A stretch of DNA of 64,000 nt from positions 1,736,001-1,800,000 of the forward strand of contig NZ_CP102283.1 in the NCBI RefSeq assembly GCF_025150565.1, read 5' to 3'. Below are positions 37,934 through 51,660 of this stretch, one piece after another; the first letter of the stretch is position 1; each line of letters begins with the position of its first letter. The position numbers and the translations under genes are program-made. The notes below the pieces were generated by a model, which worked only from the letters and a program-made list of their open reading frames with translations, ran no database searches and was not told the origin of the DNA. This DNA is from Granulicatella adiacens ATCC 49175. GTDB taxonomy: Bacteria > Bacillota > Bacilli > Lactobacillales > Aerococcaceae.

Positions 37934-38419
37934 TTACCTTATTCTTTGTTCAAACTGATATTCCGTTTGCAATGTTTTTAAAAAGCCTTCTAGTCCTTTT
38001 ACAAGGGTGCGATTTGTCTCGAGTGGTTTCTTTTTCCCGAGAGTGATTTCTTCCTTTGCCCGTTCCACTAAAGCATTGAATTCCTTCTTGAAAGAATGAC
38101 GTCTCCAGAAAAAGACAGCTCCTAGAACGATAAAAGGAACACTCCATAACAAGAAATAGTAGTTCGTGATGATTACTAAGGCTTCGATCACTCTCCCAAC
38201 ACCCAGTTTAGGAATGAATTCCAATTCACTCCCTATCAACAAAAAGAAGTATGTATTTTGTAAATAGACACCTGCAAAACAAAGAGCGAATACGGGCCAT
38301 AGTATACGCGCTATTTGATGATCTTTCGGTAAAGGTGCTGCATCTTCTCTTTCAGAAATCACCTTTTCCAATAATTCTCGGAGTCGGTTGGCTGTTTCTT
38401 GTGTGACTTTCTTCTTCAT
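37934..38419 (-). CDS. Two-TM paralogue array, member 1
   Basis: The 161-residue protein has the array layout: a leading amphipathic segment (TANRLRELLEKVISEREDAA and a Leu-Pro), TM segments at about 47-70 and 85-108, then a charged C-terminal helix (VERAKEEITLGKKKPLETNR and LVKGLEGFLKTLQTEYQ). The R-L-R-x-L-L opening is shared with all members of the array. Function unknown. Position next to yjjG suggests only co-transcription. Confidence 0.8.
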   Translation of the reverse strand: MKKKVTQETANRLRELLEKVISEREDAAPLPKDHQIARILWPVFALCFAGVYLQNTYFFLLIGSELEFIPKLGVGRVIEALVIITNYYFLLWSVPFIVLGAVFFWRRHSFKKEFNALVERAKEEITLGKKKPLETNRTLVKGLEGFLKTLQTEYQFEQRIR

Positions 38420-38462
38420 TCTTACTCCTTCTGTTTTTAAATCTCTTTATTTTAAAGTAGCC

Positions 38463-38943
38463 TTATAACCCATAAGTTTTGTATTTTTTAACGAGGAACT
38501 GAGCGTGTTTGACGTAGTCGTTCTCGTTTCCGTGAAATGCCTTCAGTGCTTCTTCGGCAACCGGCAAGAGTGCGCGGATGTCTTTTTGGATAAAGAGCCG
38601 GTTACGTGTGTATAGCGCCGTTGCAAAAAAATTCCTAAAATGGGAATCCTCCAGATGAGCCATAAATAAAGAGTGGCAATCATCAAAAAGGCAAAATACA
38701 GTAAAGGTGGCATAATAATCGCAGCCACGGATAACAGGACGGTTCCAAACCCCGTCAACGATAAAATGATTGCAAAGAACGTCAACAACATCGAGGCTAC
38801 TTTTCGTATCTTTGCATCCGTATACGGAACGGTTATATTTAAATTCTCTTCTATGACTACTCTTTCTAGAGGAACTTCAATCGACTAAGTTGGTCTTCAG
38901 AAAGTCTGTAGTAAGACTTGATTATTTCTCGGTTTTCTTCCAT
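38463..38943 (-). pseudogene. Two-TM paralogue array, frameshifted member 2
   Basis: The gene starts MEENREIIKSYYRLSEDQLS, very similar to member 4 (MEEHREMPKSYYNLSEDQLS). One shift at about 38875 moves the frame to PLERVVIEENLNITVPYTDA and the TM segments, and a second near 38640 is needed to reach the C-terminal helix (IRALLPVAEEALKAF…VKKYKTYGL). It is therefore broken twice. The start overlaps the end of member 3 by 22 nt. Confidence 0.75.
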
Positions 38944-39908
38944 CCTAAGTTCTCTCCCAGGATATAATATTTCGACTCTAACACTTGCATCAATCTTTGA
39001 AGCTGCTTGATTTCTCCCGGAACATCCTCCACAGCAACATTCTTATACAGTGCAATTTCTGCTCGAGCGATCTCTATTAGTTTAGTAAAAGCGCTTCTTC
39101 GATATTCATGAACGCTAGAAGAGATCCCAAAATATAACACCCATAGCATGCCGATTGGAAGCCCAAAGAAAGCAAGCACAATCATGGCATCATAGTATGA
39201 TTTAGTGAATAACCCTATTATTGGAAGAGTGACAACCAAACAACCGAACAGCACTATATTATGAATGATACTAATCAGAAAGCATGGCACACCTTTTGGC
39301 AACTTTGTGGCGTCTTGCTGTCGTTTGGATAAAATGGTCACAAGCTGTTGTCGTAGTTGAGAAATATCTTCTTGTGAAACGTTTCTATGAAATAATCGTA
39401 ATAATGACTTTATACCCGGTTCACGTGACTCTTCGATGTTGAACGCATCATCATTTCCAGACAAATACTGCTTTAATGCTTTCACACTGTTTGGAAGTTC
39501 TTCGTCGGTGAAGTTTTGCCATTCCAAGACTTCTTCTTTTGCTCTACGTAAAATATGTGCCTGCTCTTCTTTAAAAGCCATACGTTCCCATAGAGAAAGT
39601 CCAACTCCAACGATAAAAATAAATACATATATTCTAAAGAACGGATTAAACTCAATTTGATCCTTTAAAAATTCTAAAGGATGTGTAACCAACCTCTGAA
39701 ACAAAAATTCAAAACCTGGTAAAGAAAACAGGAAGATGAATGCAGTTAATATTATCAAGAATATTTTTAAAATGTTTTTTAAGATAATTGGCATTACTGA
39801 AGCACTAGGAAGTGCAACCACTTCCCCTGAACGTTCTCGAATCGCTGCCATTAGAAATTCTCTTAGTTGCGCCAGCTGAATTTCTTCAATCCGTTTTTTC
39901 TTATTCAT
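38922..39908 (-). CDS. Two-TM paralogue array, member 3 (double unit)
   Basis: The protein has 328 residues from the ATG at 39908, chosen because GGGGGA sits 5 nt before it (an upstream in-frame ATG at 39947 would add 13 residues). It holds two units: one opens IQLAQLREFLMAAIRERSGE, the second ISQLRQQLVTILSKRQQDAT near residue 170. Each unit has two TM helices and a charged helical tail with LP-x-x-(V/I)-K-x-L (ELPNSVKALKQYL, DVPGEIKQLQRLM). It looks like a fusion of two tandem paralogues. Function unknown. Confidence 0.8.
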   Translation of the reverse strand: MNKKKRIEEIQLAQLREFLMAAIRERSGEVVALPSASVMPIILKNILKIFLIILTAFIFLFSLPGFEFLFQRLVTHPLEFLKDQIEFNPFFRIYVFIFIVGVGLSLWERMAFKEEQAHILRRAKEEVLEWQNFTDEELPNSVKALKQYLSGNDDAFNIEESREPGIKSLLRLFHRNVSQEDISQLRQQLVTILSKRQQDATKLPKGVPCFLISIIHNIVLFGCLVVTLPIIGLFTKSYYDAMIVLAFFGLPIGMLWVLYFGISSSVHEYRRSAFTKLIEIARAEIALYKNVAVEDVPGEIKQLQRLMQVLESKYYILGENLGWKKTEK

Positions 39909-40021
39909 AGATCCCCCTAAATCCGACTGTTTATTTCTTTTCATCACATAAATCCATCTATGTCATATTCTCTTCTAATCCCTTTAAGAGATCCCTCAAT
40001 TTTTGCCTCTGCTTAATGTTT

Positions 40022-40963
40022 TTAAACCGTCATTCCGTATGCTTGGCTTAATTCATACACACAATCATCCAACTCTTGAATCAACTCTTCTGAGAGTTCT
40101 AACTGTTGTTCCTTGATTCTTTTCGCATCCTCATCCGCAAGTTTTAATAATTCCTCAAACTCTTGTTGTGCTTTCTTCTTTTGGAACTGAAGGAGTAATT
40201 TATAACTAATGATCATTCCTAGAAGAAGTATAATGAGTATAATAATTCCCTTTTCGAGGGTAAAAGATGCAGACGCTCTAAATATCAAATGATGCCATAG
40301 AACTAAGCAAAAAATAACATCTGCTATCACTATCCATTTTTGAACAAGTTGTGGAGTTCCCCATTTCGATTCCGGTATGTCTGTTCTTTTTGGGTTTATC
40401 TTTCGTAAAAGCTGTTTTAATCGATGGATTCTGAAATCTTCTCTTTGTTTTTCATTTTGATTAAATTCTGTACCCTTTTTCATAACACTCATAAAATATT
40501 TTAAAGTTACAATCTCCTGCGGAAGAGAATCTTGAGGTATATTTTTTGATCCATTAATAATAATATTTGCAGCATTCATTAATCTATCAGTTTCTCTTTG
40601 CTTAGAAAATCGAATAAATCTGTTGCTAAAAATAAGTACCAAAAGAGGAAACACCCAGCAGATCAATACGATTGGCCATGCCATTAGATTAGTGAATAGT
40701 ATATACCTTACCCCCTCTATATTTCCTAGTAATAAAACCACTACAAAAGTTAGTGCTACTAGCGGAAAAGCAGTGATGCAAAGAATGCCAATCATTATCA
40801 ACTTGCCAAGAAAAAGACCCTCTCTCATTTTTCTCAATGAACGCGGCAATGATTGTACCTGACTATTCTCTAGAGAAACCTTCTTCAATAGGTCCCTTAA
40901 TCGACTAAGCTGGTCTTCAGATAGGTTGTAGTAAGACTTGGGCATCTCTCGGTGTTCCTCCAT
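40022..40963 (-). CDS. Two-TM paralogue array, member 4 (double unit)
   Basis: The 313-residue protein holds two array units. Unit 1 opens EDQLSRLRDLLKKVSLENSQ, with TMs at about 52-80 and 90-115 and a tail containing LPQEIVTLKYFMS. Unit 2 opens FRIHRLKQLLRKINPKRTDI near residue 178, with TMs at about 215-260 and a tail ending LSEELIQELDDCVYELSQAY. Another member (the broken one at 38463) begins almost identically, so duplication has been recent. Function unknown. Confidence 0.8.
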   Translation of the reverse strand: MEEHREMPKSYYNLSEDQLSRLRDLLKKVSLENSQVQSLPRSLRKMREGLFLGKLIMIGILCITAFPLVALTFVVVLLLGNIEGVRYILFTNLMAWPIVLICWVFPLLVLIFSNRFIRFSKQRETDRLMNAANIIINGSKNIPQDSLPQEIVTLKYFMSVMKKGTEFNQNEKQREDFRIHRLKQLLRKINPKRTDIPESKWGTPQLVQKWIVIADVIFCLVLWHHLIFRASASFTLEKGIIILIILLLGMIISYKLLLQFQKKKAQQEFEELLKLADEDAKRIKEQQLELSEELIQELDDCVYELSQAYGMTV

Positions 40964-41006
40964 TCTAAAATTTATCCTTTTTTAAAAAGATTCCTTTTAC
41001 AGGTTT

Positions 41007-41486
41007 CTAAGACAAATCGTAGTCTAATCGTAACTCCTCTAAATGATATTTTAATGCTTTTACAGAATGCGGAATCTCTGCAGATGGAGTGTGTTCCCAT
41101 TTCGCGAGCTCTTCATCCGCTCTTGCAATCACTTCTCTCACATCTTGTTTTTGAAGGTGCAGTTGCAAGAAATATAAAAAGAGCATCACTATTGGAAGAA
41201 CTACGATAATATAAGGTTCATGTTGAACATATTCCAGAGCATACTTCACAGCGTATTGATTTCCTTCATACCAAACTTGCACGAAATGAAAGAATCCTCT
41301 TATTTTATAATTTAATGACCATATATTATAGATTTCGACAATCATTAAAATGTTAAAAAGTATCTTTGGAATATATCTATACGGTCGCACTTCAATCGTC
41401 TCTTCTTCCATACCAGATAAAGCCGCAACTTCATTGACCAATTGTTGTAGTCTATCAATTCTTCCCTCTTCAAATCTTCTTTTCAT
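41007..41486 (-). CDS. Two-TM paralogue array, member 5
   Basis: The 159-residue protein opens GRIDRLQQLVNEVAALSGME, has TM segments at about 48-70 and 98-115 and a tail ARADEELAKWEHTPSAEIPH followed by SVKALKYHLEELRLDYD. The order and lengths match the other single-unit members; sequence identity is limited to the opening heptads, LP/IP and the LKxxLEEL tail. Function unknown. Confidence 0.8.
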   Translation of the reverse strand: MKRRFEEGRIDRLQQLVNEVAALSGMEEETIEVRPYRYIPKILFNILMIVEIYNIWSLNYKIRGFFHFVQVWYEGNQYAVKYALEYVQHEPYIIVVLPIVMLFLYFLQLHLQKQDVREVIARADEELAKWEHTPSAEIPHSVKALKYHLEELRLDYDLS

Positions 41487-41503
41487 CTTTTATTCCCCAA
41501 AAT

Positions 41504-41989
41504 TTATTTACTTCCCTTGTCATTGGTTACTTCTGTTTCTAACTTCAACTCTTCCATGTAGTACAGTAGTCTTTCCGCTTCTTTACTCATTGGAATCAGC
41601 GGATCTTCTTTGTATACAGAAATCTCTTCCTCGGCGAGTTCAGTTAACATTCCAAACTCTTGATAATAGGACTCTACCCTGAAATAATGAACCAAATAAA
41701 TGACCCCTATAATGAGGAGTAGCGTGCCCATCCCTAGTAAAATCCCAAAAAGTAAAAACGGCGGGAAAAAAAGCCCCATCAGAATAAAAGCTCCTCCCGA
41801 CTCAAAGATGTCTGGATTCATAAGTAGCGAACCTACTAAGATAAATTCTAGTGCAAGAACGAGGCCTCTAGAGATTCTTCCATCCTGCGGCAACTCATTC
41901 TCACTATTATTTTGCATCATCACCGCTGTAAGCAATTCCCGCATCCGCGTTAATCGTCTTTGTCTGATCCCTTTTCTAAATAATTTCAT
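41504..41989 (-). CDS. Two-TM paralogue array, member 6
   Basis: The 161-residue protein opens RQRRLTRMRELLTAVMMQNN and LPQDGRI, has TM segments at about 50-80 and 88-110 and a tail ELAEEEISVYKEDPLIPMSK followed by RLLYYMEELKLETE. It lies 17 nt before member 5 on the same strand, indicating one transcript. Function unknown. Confidence 0.8.
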   Translation of the reverse strand: MKLFRKGIRQRRLTRMRELLTAVMMQNNSENELPQDGRISRGLVLALEFILVGSLLMNPDIFESGGAFILMGLFFPPFLLFGILLGMGTLLLIIGVIYLVHYFRVESYYQEFGMLTELAEEEISVYKEDPLIPMSKEAERLLYYMEELKLETEVTNDKGSK

Positions 41990-42000
41990 TTCGTATCTCC

Positions 42001-42192
42001 CTAAAATTCGAATATCTTCTTATAATCCTCAATAAGAAACTCTGCGTCTTCAATGTCGCTTGTCATATTTGTGCGGTTGGTTTCTTTTAATTTTTTCTCT
42101 AACATTTTCAATATAGTAAATTCTTTATTTAAGGTGGAGCCGTAACGTTTTGACGTTGTAGCTCCGAAGCATACATTATGTACTTTCCTCAT
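42001..42192 (-). pseudogene. Two-TM paralogue array, C-terminal remnant
   Basis: Only the C-terminal helix matches (LKETNRTNMTSDIEDAEFLI, EDYKKIFEF), almost identical to the tails of the members at 44022 and 44496. The opening segment and both TM helices are missing and replaced by unrelated residues, so this is a truncated member 11 nt upstream of member 6. Confidence 0.65.
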
Positions 42193-42387
42193 TAAATAAT
42201 TCTATCATCTATTGATAACGAGAATTGCTTATATTGTACCATAAACATAGGAAAAATGAATATGACAAGATAGTTAAAAACCTTTGTAAATAAAGCTTAA
42301 ATCAATCTTCGAACATTTAAATGTGTTAAAGATTTATCGATATGGTATGATAAAAAACAGAAATATCCTAAATATAAGAGGCGCGTT

Positions 42388-43605
42388 ATGAAAGAAAATG
42401 AAGTTATTTTAAAAAGGCAATCTACTCGAATATTTTTCAAAAATGGGGATACGGATTTTTTCTTTAATTGGTTGTTAGGTATAGGAGAAGTTTTTGGTTT
42501 TTCTCACGGAGAACTTTATTATCTTGCCCAAGAGTTGGGCAAATCACCAAAACCTGATAACTGGAAAAGTGTTTTTTTATCGCATGGAAACTATCTTGAA
42601 CAAAAAGTAAGTCATTCGGGTTTGAGTGAGCAAACAAAGGCACAATATTATCTAGCACAGACCTATTCCCTTCGTTCAGCAATTCAGTTTATCAATCCTT
42701 TTTCTGACGAGTATTTGCCTACCGTTCATAAAATGGAGACGGCGTTTTCTAACGCCATTCAATCACTAGGAGCCCCAGTCGAAGAATTATCGATTCCTTA
42801 TCAAGATTCCTATTTGCCGGGCTATTATCTTCACAGTGGTAATCATTGTCCAACATTGATTATGATTGGTGGTGGAGATACCTATCGTGAAGATTTATTT
42901 TACTTTGCTGGCTATCCAGGTTGGATGCGAAGTTACAATGTTTTAATGGTTGATCTACCTGGTCAAGGGTCCAACCCTGGCAGAGGTTTAACCTTTGATG
43001 TAAATGCCTCTATTCCAATTTCACAGTGCATAGACTGGTTAGAAGGAAGAAATCCTCAGCTGAATCATCTAGCCATTTATGGAGTTAGCGGAGGGGGATA
43101 TTTTACCGCACAAGCTGTCGAAGAAGATACAAGAATCCATGCATGGATTGCAAGCACTCCTATTTATGACGTTTCGGAAATCTTTAGAAAAGAATTTGGG
43201 GCAGGCCTAAAAACTCCAAGTTGGTTAATGAATGTCCTTTTAAAGTTAGCTGGAAGTCTGAATGAGGCTGCGGATTTAAATCTTAAAAAATATGCTTGGC
43301 AGTTTGGTACTTCTGATTTTAAGAGTGCTATTAATGAAGTGTTTAAGCGTGCAAAGGTTGTGGACTATCAAAAAATTCAGTGTCCTTGCCTATTTATCAT
43401 GGGAGAGGGTGAAGGCGCCGAATTACAACACCAAACCAGAGTGATTTTCGAAGCACTTAAGTCTAAAAATCCGCAAACTAAACTTCAAATTTTTGAAGCG
43501 GAAAGTGGTGCGGATGCTCATTGCCAAGTCAACAATTTGAGACTCGCTCATAATGTCGTTTTTGATTGGTTGGACACCTTATTTGAATGGAATCAGAAGG
43601 GATAA
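42388..43605 (+). CDS. Alpha/beta-fold hydrolase (FrsA/aminopeptidase-like)
   Basis: The 405-residue cytoplasmic hydrolase has an N-terminal helical domain (about 1-150) and a C-terminal alpha/beta hydrolase core with oxyanion GGGDTYRED, nucleophile elbow YGVSGGGYF, the acid in IMGEGEGAELQHQ and a His in GADAHCQVNN. The helical domain followed by the core resembles FrsA and the 2,6-dihydroxypseudooxynicotine-hydrolase group. It is transcribed opposite to the surrounding paralogue array and splits it in two, with lower GC than the array flanks, so it was probably inserted. Substrate unknown. Confidence 0.85.
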   Translation: MKENEVILKRQSTRIFFKNGDTDFFFNWLLGIGEVFGFSHGELYYLAQELGKSPKPDNWKSVFLSHGNYLEQKVSHSGLSEQTKAQYYLAQTYSLRSAIQFINPFSDEYLPTVHKMETAFSNAIQSLGAPVEELSIPYQDSYLPGYYLHSGNHCPTLIMIGGGDTYREDLFYFAGYPGWMRSYNVLMVDLPGQGSNPGRGLTFDVNASIPISQCIDWLEGRNPQLNHLAIYGVSGGGYFTAQAVEEDTRIHAWIASTPIYDVSEIFRKEFGAGLKTPSWLMNVLLKLAGSLNEAADLNLKKYAWQFGTSDFKSAINEVFKRAKVVDYQKIQCPCLFIMGEGEGAELQHQTRVIFEALKSKNPQTKLQIFEAESGADAHCQVNNLRLAHNVVFDWLDTLFEWNQKG

Positions 43606-43791
43606 ATTAGATTTATAATCCTGATTATAGTCCTCCTAACAATAATGTTTGAGTAGCTGTAACATCCTTTTGATTGAGTAGTTACGCTATTTGATTCATC
43701 TTAGGCTAAGCAGATAAACAGAAAACTAAAGTCTTTTGTTTATCTTTGCATACTTCCGTTCATCAAAATTACCTTTTATAGTTTCGTCGCA

Positions 43792-43840
43792 AAAAACGGC
43801 TTTCTTGTGGTGCTACATGCACTTACAAGAAAGCCGTTTT
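43792..43840. terminator. Bidirectional terminator after the hydrolase gene
   Basis: AAAAACGGCTTTCTTGT and ACAAGAAAGCCGTTTTT pair around a 15-nt loop and carry A/T runs on both sides. Confidence 0.85.
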
Positions 43841-43857
43841 TATTTATCTCTCTATGT

Positions 43858-44010
43858 TTAGACCTCTATGATTCCTAATCCTAACTCTGGCGCTTGCATG
43901 TTCATTACCTTCAATCTGATGGTTTGTTGAAGGTATTTTTCAATTACATTCAAATACTCTTCGCCCAAGTATGTAAACAAACTCCCTTTACAAATCCATC
44001 CTATCAATGA
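43858..44010 (-). pseudogene. Unidentified C-terminal gene remnant
   Basis: An open stretch without a start reads CKGSLFTYLGEEYLNVIEKY, LQQTIRLKVMNMQAPELGLG, IIEV and stop. The composition looks coding, but I cannot name the family. It lies just downstream of the array member at 44022. Confidence 0.35.
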
Positions 44011-44021
44011 ATTTCATACCT

Positions 44022-44483
44022 TCATAAGCTGTTCTTTTCATAGTTTGCGATAAGAAACTCCGCGTCTTCGATGTCATCGTCCATATCTATGCGGTTAGTT
44101 TCTTTTAAAATCGCCATGCTCTTCTTGGCCAGCACGATGAGTCCACTGATTTCTTTTTCATAAAATTTTTGCTTTAGAAAAAGAAGTAGGCACCAAAGGA
44201 AGAAGAGTGGAACGGCAAAAAACAAGACTAAAAGCGAGATGGAGACAAATCCCGGCTCCTGTGCTACACGAGCGACGAGGGCCATTGTCGGTGCTTTGAA
44301 GATTTCGGTCTTGATAAAGAAATAGCCTAGAAACCCCGTAATAAATCCAATCGTAGCCAGTTTTTGTTCTGCACGCTTTGGTTTCGCCTGTGTGACACCT
44401 GCTTCTTGCGTCAATATGTCAGTCAAATAACGAAACTGCGCTAACTGTTGATTCGTAATGCGATTATGAAACGAAAACTTCAT
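44022..44483 (-). CDS. Two-TM paralogue array, member 7
   Basis: The 153-residue protein opens NQQLAQFRYLTDILTQEAGV, has TM segments at about 45-65 and 80-108 and a tail IVLAKKSMAILKETNRIDMD followed by DDIEDAEFLIANYEK. The IEDAEFLI tail is shared with the remnant at 42001 and with the member at 44496. It is the last gene of a four-gene cluster (45800 to 44022) with gaps of 1-12 nt. Function unknown. Confidence 0.8.
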   Translation of the reverse strand: MKFSFHNRITNQQLAQFRYLTDILTQEAGVTQAKPKRAEQKLATIGFITGFLGYFFIKTEIFKAPTMALVARVAQEPGFVSISLLVLFFAVPLFFLWCLLLFLKQKFYEKEISGLIVLAKKSMAILKETNRIDMDDDIEDAEFLIANYEKNSL

Positions 44484-44495
44484 CTTCTTCTCCTC

Positions 44496-44963
44496 CTAAA
44501 ATCCAAATCGGTCCTTATAATCCTCAATCAGAAATTCTGCGTCTTCGATATCCTCTTCTAAGTCGTCGCGTCCAGCTACTTTGAGCGATGCAATCGCACG
44601 TTCCGCAAAGGGTATCAGTTCGCCAAGTTTACGTGTCAGTACTTTTTTAGACCAGATTCGGTACAGAAGAAAAAAGAATACCAAAAATAAGGATAAAGAA
44701 ATAAATGGGAAGATTAGAAAAACCACACTATTTTCTTGGGCGAACTTACCAAGAAAATACTTAACGGGTAGCCCAAAAATCCCTGTACGCATCACTAGGA
44801 TGAATAAAAACATGCCCGCAATCATTTTGATGAATGCTATTTTGTCGACTAGTCCCGGTAGTTCATCATCCATTCCCGCCTCTTTCATTAAGTAGCTTGT
44901 CAACTCACGGAAGTTCACTAACATTTTTCTCGTCGCAACGTCTTTAAATAGAAATTTAAACAT
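44496..44963 (-). CDS. Two-TM paralogue array, member 8
   Basis: The 155-residue protein opens RKMLVNFRELTSYLMKEAGM, has TM segments at about 45-68 and 85-110 and a tail GELIPFAERAIASLKVAGRD followed by EDIEDAEFLIEDYKDRFGF. The final DYKDRFGF is identical to that of the member at 45348. It starts 1 nt after the TIGR02328 gene. Function unknown. Confidence 0.8.
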   Translation of the reverse strand: MFKFLFKDVATRKMLVNFRELTSYLMKEAGMDDELPGLVDKIAFIKMIAGMFLFILVMRTGIFGLPVKYFLGKFAQENSVVFLIFPFISLSLFLVFFFLLYRIWSKKVLTRKLGELIPFAERAIASLKVAGRDDLEEDIEDAEFLIEDYKDRFGF

Positions 44964-44964
44964 A

Positions 44965-45336
44965 CTATTCTCCTCCTAGAGCGATTCCTTTTTGTGCCAA
45001 ATTCTCCACACATTCTTTGTAATACGCATCATCATGCTCTTTGTATAACGGACTCTTCCACTCACACGTCACAACTTCGGTATACGGCGGACACACTTTT
45101 CCCCGGTACGACGCCTCTTTCCATAGAGGGGTCACATTATACCCACGGCGCTCCATTTCATCCATAATCAACGTATGGTACTGATAAAGCACATACGGGC
45201 TATAAGTAAACACATAGTCCACCGTTGCGTGCTTCTTGCCCCATCCATTTCCTCTAAGGGCACAACATTCACGGTGTTGCCCCAAGAGTTGCGGACGCGG
45301 AAGCTTTCCAATCAAGTCTTCATGCCATAATCTCAT
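44965..45336 (-). CDS. TIGR02328 family protein (pyrimidine-dimer-glycosylase-like)
   Basis: The 123-residue protein begins MRLWHEDLIGKLPRPQLLGQ, followed by HRECCALRGNGWGKKHATVD, the signature of the TIGR02328 family, annotated in places as pyrimidine dimer DNA glycosylase/endonuclease V-like. The core MRLW-H-x-x-L-I-x-x-LPR-x-x-L-x-x-QHRE pattern with Cys pairs is intact, so it is probably functional, but the activity of this group is not established to my knowledge. It is embedded between two members of the membrane-protein array (gaps 11 and 1 nt). Confidence 0.85.
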   Translation of the reverse strand: MRLWHEDLIGKLPRPQLLGQHRECCALRGNGWGKKHATVDYVFTYSPYVLYQYHTLIMDEMERRGYNVTPLWKEASYRGKVCPPYTEVVTCEWKSPLYKEHDDAYYKECVENLAQKGIALGGE

Positions 45337-45347
45337 CCATCTTCCTC

Positions 45348-45800
45348 CTAAAATCCAAATCGGTCCTTATAGTCCGCCATCAGGACTTCTACATCTTCGA
45401 TATCCTCTGCCAGTTCCGTGCGCCCCTCTTCCTTCAAGCGAGCGACCACCTGCTCAGCAAAAGTCACTAAGTTTTTTAATTCTCGTTTTAAATCCTTTTG
45501 AATCCATAATTGATCTAAAAATAAGACCAAGAATACACAGAGCCCCATAAAGAGAGCGGGAATCCCGATAGAAAACCATCCAAACTGTTCCAACAATGTC
45601 TGAAACGGAACCCACGTAAACGAACTCCGATAGAAAATAATGGCAAGTGCCAGCACGACAACCGTTGGCACAACAGGATTTCGTTCCACTTTAGCCGGAA
45701 CCTCCTCTGTCAACTCTGCCTTTTCAGCTAAAAACTCAACGATTTCACGAAAACGACTGACCGTCTTCTTCGACAGAAAACTTCTAAACAACTGATTCAC
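45348..45800 (-). CDS. Two-TM paralogue array, member 9
   Basis: The 150-residue protein opens KKTVSRFREIVEFLAEKAEL, has TM segments at about 45-65 and 75-97 and a tail LVTFAEQVVARLKEEGRTEL followed by EDIEDVEVLMADYKDRFGF. It is the first gene of the 45800-44022 cluster. Function unknown. Confidence 0.8.
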   Translation of the reverse strand: MNQLFRSFLSKKTVSRFREIVEFLAEKAELTEEVPAKVERNPVVPTVVVLALAIIFYRSSFTWVPFQTLLEQFGWFSIGIPALFMGLCVFLVLFLDQLWIQKDLKRELKNLVTFAEQVVARLKEEGRTELAEDIEDVEVLMADYKDRFGF

Positions 45801-45970
45801 TGCCTTCCCCTTCCTGGAACATGCCTTTTTACTTTATTTCCCAATTATATCATCTCCGCCCCCACTTCGCCTACACCCCCATGAATTTATCGGATGATTA
45901 AGAAAAACACCCTTCCGCAGCAAACTTTCCAGCACCCATCTCCCTCTAAAACCACCACACCGCATTGTTT

Positions 45971-46103
45971 CCCTTCCCAAGACCGGAAGGCAAGCTCTGC
46001 CATGCCCCGTCCCCTCATCAAGCACAAAAGGAACACCCTGCTCATCCTAGCCCCGAACCCCATCAAAACGCACTCTCCCGCCTCATCGAAGGAAAAAATA
46101 AAA
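45971..46103. repeat. GC-rich direct repeat, copy 1
   Basis: About 133 bp beginning CCCTTCCCAAGACCGGAAGG and ending CCTCATCGAAGGAAAAAATA. It recurs at 46215-46349 with scattered differences. In both copies it is followed by the 5' arm of the structured element, so the duplicated unit includes both. Confidence 0.75.
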
Positions 46104-46132
46104 CAGGTTGACACTGCGCGATTGGAAACGAC

Positions 46133-46196
46133 CCCTCCTCGGATTCTATAGTAACAACAATAGCGAACAGTAACCGATGTGAATTAGAGGGCGATT
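46133..46196 (+). repeat. Structured interspersed element, internally deleted copy 3
   Basis: Only the 5' arm is left: GGATTCTATAGTAAC, AATAGCG, ACCGATGTGAATTAGAGGGCG, then directly GATTTAAGAC. In the full copy at 46386 the two GAGGGCG occurrences (one in hairpin 1, one at the 3' outer arm) flank everything missing here, so recombination between them explains the deletion. Confidence 0.7.
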
Positions 46197-46214
46197 TAAG
46201 ACATTCGCGTTTCT

Positions 46215-46349
46215 CCCTTCCAAAGACCGGAAGGCAAGCTCTGCCACGCCTGTCCCCTTCACAAACTCAGAGAAGTAACCAGCCTGGCTCATCCTAGCCC
46301 CGCACCCCATCGAAACGCACTCTCCCGCCTCATCGAAGGTAAAATAAAA
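46215..46349. repeat. GC-rich direct repeat, copy 2
   Basis: The second copy of the 45971-46103 sequence (CCCTTCCAAAGACCGGAAGG ... CCTCATCGAAGGTAAAATAA). It is followed by element copy 4. No gene recognised on either strand. Confidence 0.75.
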
Positions 46350-46385
46350 TCTATTGATTCAAAGCCGTATCGTTGGCTTAAAAAA

Positions 46386-46551
46386 GCCCTCGGGGACTCT
46401 ATAGTGAGAATAGTAAAGAAAAAGCAACCGATGTGAATTAGAGGGCGCCAGGAATTTATTCCTAGCACCCTCTTTGAAGCTCGGTAGGATTGAGACCTAG
46501 GCTCAATCCGATGCCTTTACTATCATCACTATGAAGATGTCCCCCGAGGGC
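46386..46551 (+). repeat. Structured interspersed element, copy 4
   Basis: The outer helix pairs GCCCTCGGGGA with TCCCCCGAGGGC and CTATAGTGA with TCACTATG. Inside are hairpin 1 (AGAGGGCGCCAGGAAT with ATTCCTAGCACCCTCT), the conserved strand TTTGAAGCTCGGTAGG, hairpin 2 (ATTGAGACCTAGGCTCAAT) and CCGATGCC. It ends 50 nt beyond the recR stop codon. Confidence 0.85.
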
Positions 46552-46601
46552 GATTTAAGACAACGTCTTAACCTTCATTTTCATCGAATCAATAGATTTT
46601 A

Positions 46602-51552: not shown

Positions 51553-51569
51553 GAATCTTCTTCTATGTA

Positions 51570-51660
51570 CATACAGCACATAGCGAACATTACTTATAGC
51601 TGCTTCCTTCCGGACCTGACTCGATTCATAAGTTCGCTATTGCCATATGGCCTAACGGCA
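51570..51660 (-). ncRNA. ffs: Signal recognition particle RNA (small bacterial type)
   Basis: On the minus strand the diagnostic apical loop sequence GTCAGGTCCGGAAGGAAGCA (symmetric loop, GGAA tetraloop) is flanked by complementary arms CGAACTTATGAA and the GTAATGTTCG side, and closed by GCCGTTAGGC near the 5' end. It is about 90 nt long, lying between tadA and dnaX as in many Firmicutes. It binds Ffh and targets membrane proteins. Confidence 0.95.

What the first reader, a model, noticed from the sequence alone, without database searches (positions are those of the whole stretch)
37934..45800. Tandem array of two-TM paralogues, about a dozen units with fusions and pseudogenes
Nine reading frames plus one broken gene and one remnant share a common plan: opening helix with (R/Q)L/F-R-x-L/I, an LP element, two TM helices and a charged C-terminal helix (IEDAEFLIEDYK or LPxxVKxLKxxL). 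Two genes hold two units each; two genes start almost identically (MEE.RE..KSYY.LSEDQLS), showing recent duplication; one member is frameshifted twice. All point the same way and are nearly contiguous. Expansions of this kind are typical of immunity, surface or phage-interaction functions, but no function is known to me.
Basis: partly seen in the sequence, partly recalled or inferred. Interest (0 to 1): 0.78.

Follow-up and report, generated by a model that had tools for sequence, protein, structure and literature searches.

The report
Tandem array of two-helix membrane proteins
A mouth bacterium (Granulicatella adiacens group) carries a dozen tandem copies of an undescribed small membrane protein whose outward-facing loop changes unusually fast between sister species, which suggests, but does not prove, that it protects the cell from toxins made by rival bacteria.

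Summary
The array is real. On the minus strand, window 37934-45800 holds 8 intact genes (two of them double), one gene broken by two frameshifts and one 3' remnant: 12 homologous units of ~155 aa. A profile built without the double genes, broken gene or remnant still finds all of them (E 6e-23 to 3e-4). Pfam, NCBIfam, PHROGs, PADLOC and PDB sequence or fold searches gave no credible match. The family occurs as an array only in the three Granulicatella adiacens-clade genomes held, at one site between recR and an HAD hydrolase gene. The four other congeners lack it. Three of 284 Streptococcus species carry one copy, nested inside the Granulicatella tree. Whole units were gained or lost between sister species, the middle of the array differs, and paralogues recombine. 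Predicted plan: conserved cytosolic helices around a two-TM hairpin. In three of six orthologue pairs, amino-acid changes pile up at the outer hairpin (pooled N:S odds ratio 3.2, p 1.7e-5), reaching the synonymous rate in two. This resembles strings of membrane immunity genes (TsaI) against secreted toxins, but no toxin lies beside it and one sister genome lacks type VII secretion. Best reading: orphan immunity array against membrane-active toxins, confidence about 0.45.

The parts
45348..45800 (-). unit w11 (150 aa, GTG start), subfamily A; positional counterpart of L007:9171-9617 but only 38% identical
44965..45336 (-). TIGR02328 / Pyr_excise-domain gene lying inside the array; not a unit; same position in the sister species
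   Evidence: (TIGR02328 E 4.9e-58)
44496..44963 (-). unit w9 (155 aa), subfamily A; orthologue of L007:10001-10468 (81%)
44022..44483 (-). unit w8 (153 aa), subfamily A
42388..43605 (+). alpha/beta-hydrolase-like gene inserted in the array on the opposite strand; absent from the sister array
42001..42192 (-). remnant: 3' end of a subfamily A unit (homology 42004-42093)
   Evidence: (E 2.7e-4)
41504..41989 (-). unit w6 (161 aa), subfamily B
41007..41486 (-). unit w5 (159 aa), subfamily B
40022..40963 (-). double-unit gene w4 (313 aa; units at about 40472-40963 and 40025-40471)
   Evidence: AF2 model repeats the same helical plan twice
38922..39947 (-). double-unit gene w3 (341 aa; units at about 39456-39908 and 38925-39455)
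38463..38943 (-). broken unit w2: two frameshifts; chimera of a w4-like 5' end and a 3' part orthologous to L007 unit s9
37934..38419 (-). unit w1 (161 aa), subfamily B; orthologue of L007:14081-14566 (76%)
   Evidence: (AF2)
45830..46600 (.). region upstream of the array holding dispersed repeat elements and an internal ~237-bp direct duplication

Best explanation
The array is a lineage-specific island of membrane immunity proteins. Each unit sits in the cytoplasmic membrane with N and C termini inside. The conserved cytosolic helices would anchor, oligomerise or connect the protein to a common cell partner. The short, fast-changing outer hairpin would recognise one variant of a membrane-active antibacterial protein or peptide (a pore-forming type VII/LXG-type toxin or a bacteriocin) made by related oral bacteria, and block its insertion or pore. 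Many non-identical copies would cover many toxin variants. Copies arise and vanish by duplication, fusion, recombination between conserved unit ends, and transfer between species. Shown: homology, gain, loss and replacement of units, recombination, probable horizontal transfer to Streptococcus, and concentration of amino-acid change at the hairpin in half of the testable pairs. Inferred: N-in/C-in topology (hydropathy, positive-inside pattern, AlphaFold), diversifying selection, the immunity role, and the kind of toxin.
For: Copy number and content differ between sister species at one conserved site. G005 and G006 are 92-94% identical in DNA here, yet G005 has one extra whole unit and lacks the last one, both as clean differences. 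Only the ends of the window and G006 arrays align well; the middle differs. Species labels are mixed on a well-split two-subfamily tree, as in birth-and-death evolution. Conserved 3' blocks (66 nt, 89%) and a shared 5' block (70 nt, 84%) occur, and there is a chimeric gene; 5' and 3' homology blocks with recombination are reported for T7SS tipC immunity genes (PMC9484751). Nonsynonymous changes cluster at the outer hairpin in w1/s10, w9/s3 and s7 (permutation p <0.0002, <0.0002, 0.0002); synonymous changes do not in w1/s10 and w9/s3 but do in s7 (p 0.012). With loops fixed in advance from hydropathy and all six pairs pooled: N:S odds ratio 3.2, p 1.7e-5; N rate p 1e-17; S rate p 0.055. Across paralogues the cytosolic helices are more conserved than TM1 and the loop. 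A single copy is found in three Streptococcus species, in two of them near transposase genes. The window genome is in such contests: EssC, two LXG toxins and tandem Imm59 genes. Known precedents: strings of 2-16 membrane TsaI genes in S. aureus (PMC9484751) and orphan ExiCD membrane immunity pairs (PMC12744356).
Against: No toxin or bacteriocin gene is recognisable beside any copy. G006 has the array but no EssC over the cut-off and no LXG, and G005 has no LXG. No match to any immunity family, TsaI/DUF443 or DUF5079/5080 included. The hairpin pN/pS is about 1 (0.41/0.39, 0.36/0.29), not clearly above it, so relaxed constraint is possible. Two of six pairs (s8, s9) show no hairpin excess, and s6b only weakly (best-window p 0.04, fixed loop p 0.34). 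Function is unproven.
Confidence: 0.45

Rival explanations
1. Lineage-specific membrane proteins with an internal role (scaffold, adaptor or regulator), in which the outer hairpin varies only because it is unconstrained; the array grows and shrinks by unequal recombination without an arms race.
For: pN/pS in the hairpin is close to 1, not above it; conservation sits in the cytosolic helices; two orthologue pairs show no hairpin excess; no toxin neighbour; the last unit lies close upstream of an HAD hydrolase gene on the same strand.
Against: Whole-unit gain and loss, chimeras and transfer to Streptococcus fit a conflict function better than a housekeeping one; neutrality does not by itself explain keeping about 10 divergent intact units.
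Confidence: 0.25
2. Phage-entry blockers: membrane hairpins that stop phage DNA injection or bind phage entry proteins at the outer face of the membrane, diversified against different phages.
For: The same anatomy and the same selection pattern would be expected; TM-anchored superinfection-exclusion proteins are known (general knowledge).
Against: No relative in 50,697 phage records, in IMG/VR scans, in PHROGs beyond chance level or in PADLOC; not on a recognisable prophage in the window.
Confidence: 0.13
3. The units are themselves membrane-permeabilising effectors (holin-like or SLATT-like 2-TM hairpins) used for killing or altruistic death.
For: Two TM helices flanked by helices is the general plan of SLATT-type effectors (general knowledge); isolated weak holin-family hits.
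Against: No sensor, kinase or nucleotide cyclase partner gene; no SLATT or holin model passes a cut-off; a dozen non-identical toxins in a row without antidotes is implausible.
Confidence: 0.07
4. Surface or antigenic variation driven by the host.
For: Fast-changing outward-facing segment.
Against: The exposed loop is only about 11-30 residues next to the membrane, under the cell wall; no secretion signal or wall anchor.
Confidence: 0.04

Closest known systems
TsaI (DUF443) immunity arrays, S. aureus T7SS toxin TspA (PMC9484751)
   Same: Strings of non-identical tandem membrane-protein genes, 2-16 per strain; one part conserved and the rest variable.
   Different: TsaI has five predicted TM helices and lies downstream of its toxin gene; ours have two, no toxin neighbour and no DUF443 match.
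TipC and EsaG immunity gene clusters (PMC9484751)
   Same: Tandem paralogues with conserved blocks through which recombination makes mosaics and copy-number change.
   Different: EsaG neutralises a nuclease toxin and TipC a lipid II phosphatase toxin; no sequence relation was found (no Pfam or NCBIfam hit).
ExiC/ExiD (DUF5079/DUF5080) orphan membrane immunity pairs (PMC12744356)
   Same: Membrane proteins that protect against an extracellular membrane-depolarising toxin, also found in strains without the toxin.
   Different: Six predicted TM helices, work as a pair; no sequence match.
SLATT 2-TM effector domains
   Same: Two TM helices flanked by helices (recalled, general knowledge).
   Different: Partner nucleotide-signalling genes absent; no Pfam or PADLOC match over a cut-off.
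Imm59 tandem immunity genes in the same genome (G000:C1 around 1.867-1.869 Mb)
   Same: Tandem paralogous immunity genes, here directly beside an LXG toxin.
   Different: Match the Imm59 model, lack the TM hairpin plan, sit at a different locus and are unrelated in sequence.

Membership tests
TsaI / DUF443 immunity proteins | DUF443 profile match | tested here: not met
   no DUF443 hit at E<=0.1 or E<=1
TsaI / DUF443 immunity proteins | five TM helices | tested here: not met
   two main hydrophobic segments in most units; AF2 gives one hairpin per unit
TsaI / DUF443 immunity proteins | located downstream of an LXG/TspA toxin gene | tested here: not met
   window read; the nearest LXG gene lies more than 40 kb away, none found in G005 or G006
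T7SS orphan immunity array (as a kind) | tandem, non-identical, copy-number variable paralogues with recombination blocks | tested here: met
T7SS orphan immunity array (as a kind) | neutralises a secreted toxin | not testable with these tools
   needs a killing or protection assay
T7SS orphan immunity array (as a kind) | cognate toxin encoded in the same species group | tested here: inconclusive
   the two LXG loci of the window genome have Imm59 genes beside them; no cognate membrane-type toxin identified
SLATT effectors | SLATT profile match | tested here: not met
SLATT effectors | linked nucleotide-signalling or sensor gene | tested here: not met
   and sister loci
Phage superinfection-exclusion proteins | relatives in phages or prophages | tested here: not met

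The most novel reading that the evidence does not exclude
A new family of modular two-helix immunity hairpins, confined to the Granulicatella adiacens clade and a few streptococcal recipients, whose outer hairpin alone sets specificity against variants of an unidentified pore-forming toxin used between oral bacteria, and which builds two-specificity proteins by fusing units in one chain.
Probability: 0.3. Interest if true: 0.7.

Novelty: new variant of a known kind. Interest (0 to 1): 0.5.

Why it matters
If it is an immunity island, it marks a hidden toxin war among oral Granulicatella and streptococci (Granulicatella also causes endocarditis), gives a bait for finding the toxin, and offers a small natural series (one hairpin, many variants, natural double units) for asking how a membrane immunity protein recognises its toxin, a point reported as open for TsaI (PMC9484751). 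If it is not, it is still an undescribed, fast-turnover membrane family that standard libraries miss.

Tried and rejected
Library searches: Pfam, NCBIfam, PHROGs and PADLOC gave only sub-threshold, mutually inconsistent hits, at the level expected for membrane helices. A PDB profile search's best hit was a designed helical protein, E 2.7e-4, judged helix composition only. Foldseek of the single-unit and double-unit models against PDB, and of the single-unit model against viral structures: nothing at E<=0.001. Plasmid, phage and viral-contig searches were empty. Weak partial hits in class Bacilli (G874, G917) and in a LiaS-like sensor-kinase gene of G534 were judged chance helix matches. A viral-contig search with alignment A1 could not be run for lack of conserved stretches. 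Self-protection from the host's own T7SS was rejected as the general explanation because G006 has the array without EssC over the cut-off or LXG. Rfam shows no known RNA in the array. Promoter and terminator scans did not exceed shuffled expectation, so one operon is inferred from gene spacing only.

Full report
SETTING. The window is bases 1736001-1800000 of a complete 1.97-Mb genome. Its closest named relative at this locus is NZ_JVNU01 'Streptococcus sp. 263_SSPC'.

OBSERVATION. Eight intact genes, all on the minus strand, encode ten units of ~150-180 aa; two genes (38922-39947 and 40022-40963) hold two units each. One further gene (38463-38943) is broken by two frameshifts, and a 3' remnant lies at 42001-42192. 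blastp between units gives E-values down to 1e-21. A profile made only from single-unit genes of three genomes recovers every half of the double genes, the broken gene and the remnant.

ANATOMY. Hydropathy shows two TM segments separated by 11-30 residues in most units; charges after TM2 are mostly positive and the loop is about neutral or negative, pointing to N-in/C-in (inferred). AlphaFold2 with a 26-sequence alignment gives an all-helical model (pLDDT 76, pTM 0.54): helix 7-22, TM1 helix 36-66, a long TM2-plus-cytosolic helix 74-130, and a C helix 134-153. The double protein repeats the plan twice. Fold searches found nothing. Both models are of moderate confidence.

DISTRIBUTION. With the profile, 3 of 7 genomes of the genus have the family, no other genome of 76 in the bacterial family has more than a weak partial hit, 1 more of 395 sampled in the order has it (a Streptococcus, identified from its genes), 3 of 284 Streptococcus species have it in total, and nothing credible appears elsewhere in 399 genomes of the class. 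The Streptococcus copies are single, nearly identical (98%, G293/G403), lie beside a DUF6287 protein gene and, in two of the three, near transposase genes, and nest inside the Granulicatella tree, so they were most likely transferred from that side. At the same place after recR the other congeners that could be read (G002-G004, and the short G001 contig) have unrelated genes and no array.

TURNOVER. In G006 the locus (L007:9171-14566) has ten units including one double gene. It aligns with the window only at the two ends (45365-44491 at 86%; 38630-37901 at 84%); the middle is different apart from one 69% stretch. G005 and G006, 92-94% identical here, differ by one whole extra unit in G005 and by loss of the last unit. 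G005's contig ends inside the array, so its full number is unknown. Units share 3' blocks (66 nt, 89% between w11 and w9) and a 5' block (70 nt, 84% between w4 and the broken gene); the broken gene joins a w4-like 5' end to a 3' part orthologous to sister unit s9.

SELECTION. For gapless orthologue pairs I counted nonsynonymous and synonymous changes by the Nei-Gojobori method. In w1/s10, w9/s3 and G005/G006 s7, nonsynonymous changes cluster at the outer TM1 end, loop and TM2 start (permutation p <0.0002, <0.0002, 0.0002). Synonymous changes do not cluster in the first two (p 0.54, 0.76) but do in s7 (p 0.012). With loops fixed from hydropathy, the pooled N:S ratio in the hairpin is 3.2 times that outside (p 1.7e-5); pN/pS reaches 0.41/0.39 and 0.36/0.29 in two pairs, versus about 0.07/0.22 and 0.06/0.22 outside. 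Two pairs (s8, s9) show no effect and s6b only a weak one. This is consistent with diversifying selection on the hairpin but does not exclude relaxed constraint. Neighbouring genes recR, dnaX, HAD and the helicase have dN/dS 0.03-0.14, against 0.42-0.45 for w9, w4a and w1 between the window and G006.

MECHANISM. A conserved inner part with a fast outer hairpin, many non-identical copies, recombination through end blocks, whole-unit gain and loss and transfer to co-resident streptococci match the behaviour of membrane immunity arrays. The window genome has a T7SS EssC, two LXG proteins and tandem Imm59 immunity genes elsewhere, so antagonism exists in the lineage; but G006 carries the array without EssC or LXG, so the units cannot be mainly self-protection from a co-encoded T7SS. 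I therefore favour orphan immunity against membrane-active toxins of neighbours (0.45), with membrane proteins under relaxed constraint (0.25) and phage-entry block (0.13) as the main rivals.

COMPARISON. The closest known kinds are the TsaI arrays and the TipC/EsaG clusters (PMC9484751) and ExiCD (PMC12744356). It works like these if the reading is right; it is not a member of TsaI/DUF443 by sequence, TM count or toxin linkage. It is best called a new family that looks like a variant of a known kind of island.

Noticed in passing
window 45830-46600: Intergenic region made of dispersed repeat elements (about 150 bp and about 50 bp types) found at dozens of places in this genome and in G006, with a few in G005 and G003, plus a local ~237-bp direct duplication; BOX/RUP-like repeats of this clade.
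   Followed up: partly
G000:C1:1866000-1874000 (L089): LXG toxin gene followed by several tandem genes of Imm59-type immunity proteins (two matched to Imm59 here), a second, independent immunity-type array in the same genome.
   Followed up: partly
G000:C1:1725500-1729100 (L088:6497-10061): LXG-TNT toxin gene with an adjacent Imm59 gene and an EndoU-domain orphan toxin fragment about 10 kb before the window.
   Followed up: partly
window 44965-45336: TIGR02328/Pyr_excise gene (90% identical to its G006 counterpart) kept inside the array in both species; why it sits there is unknown.
   Followed up: no
L063:8814-9350, L065:1495-2031, L066:1429-1965: Single, nearly identical copy of the family in three Streptococcus species next to a DUF6287 protein gene and, in two, transposase genes: a likely recent transfer.
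   Followed up: partly
window 42388-43605: alpha/beta-hydrolase gene inserted in reverse orientation into the array, next to the unit remnant.
   Followed up: no
window 51565-51651: Bacterial small SRP RNA (RF00169), minus strand.
   Followed up: no
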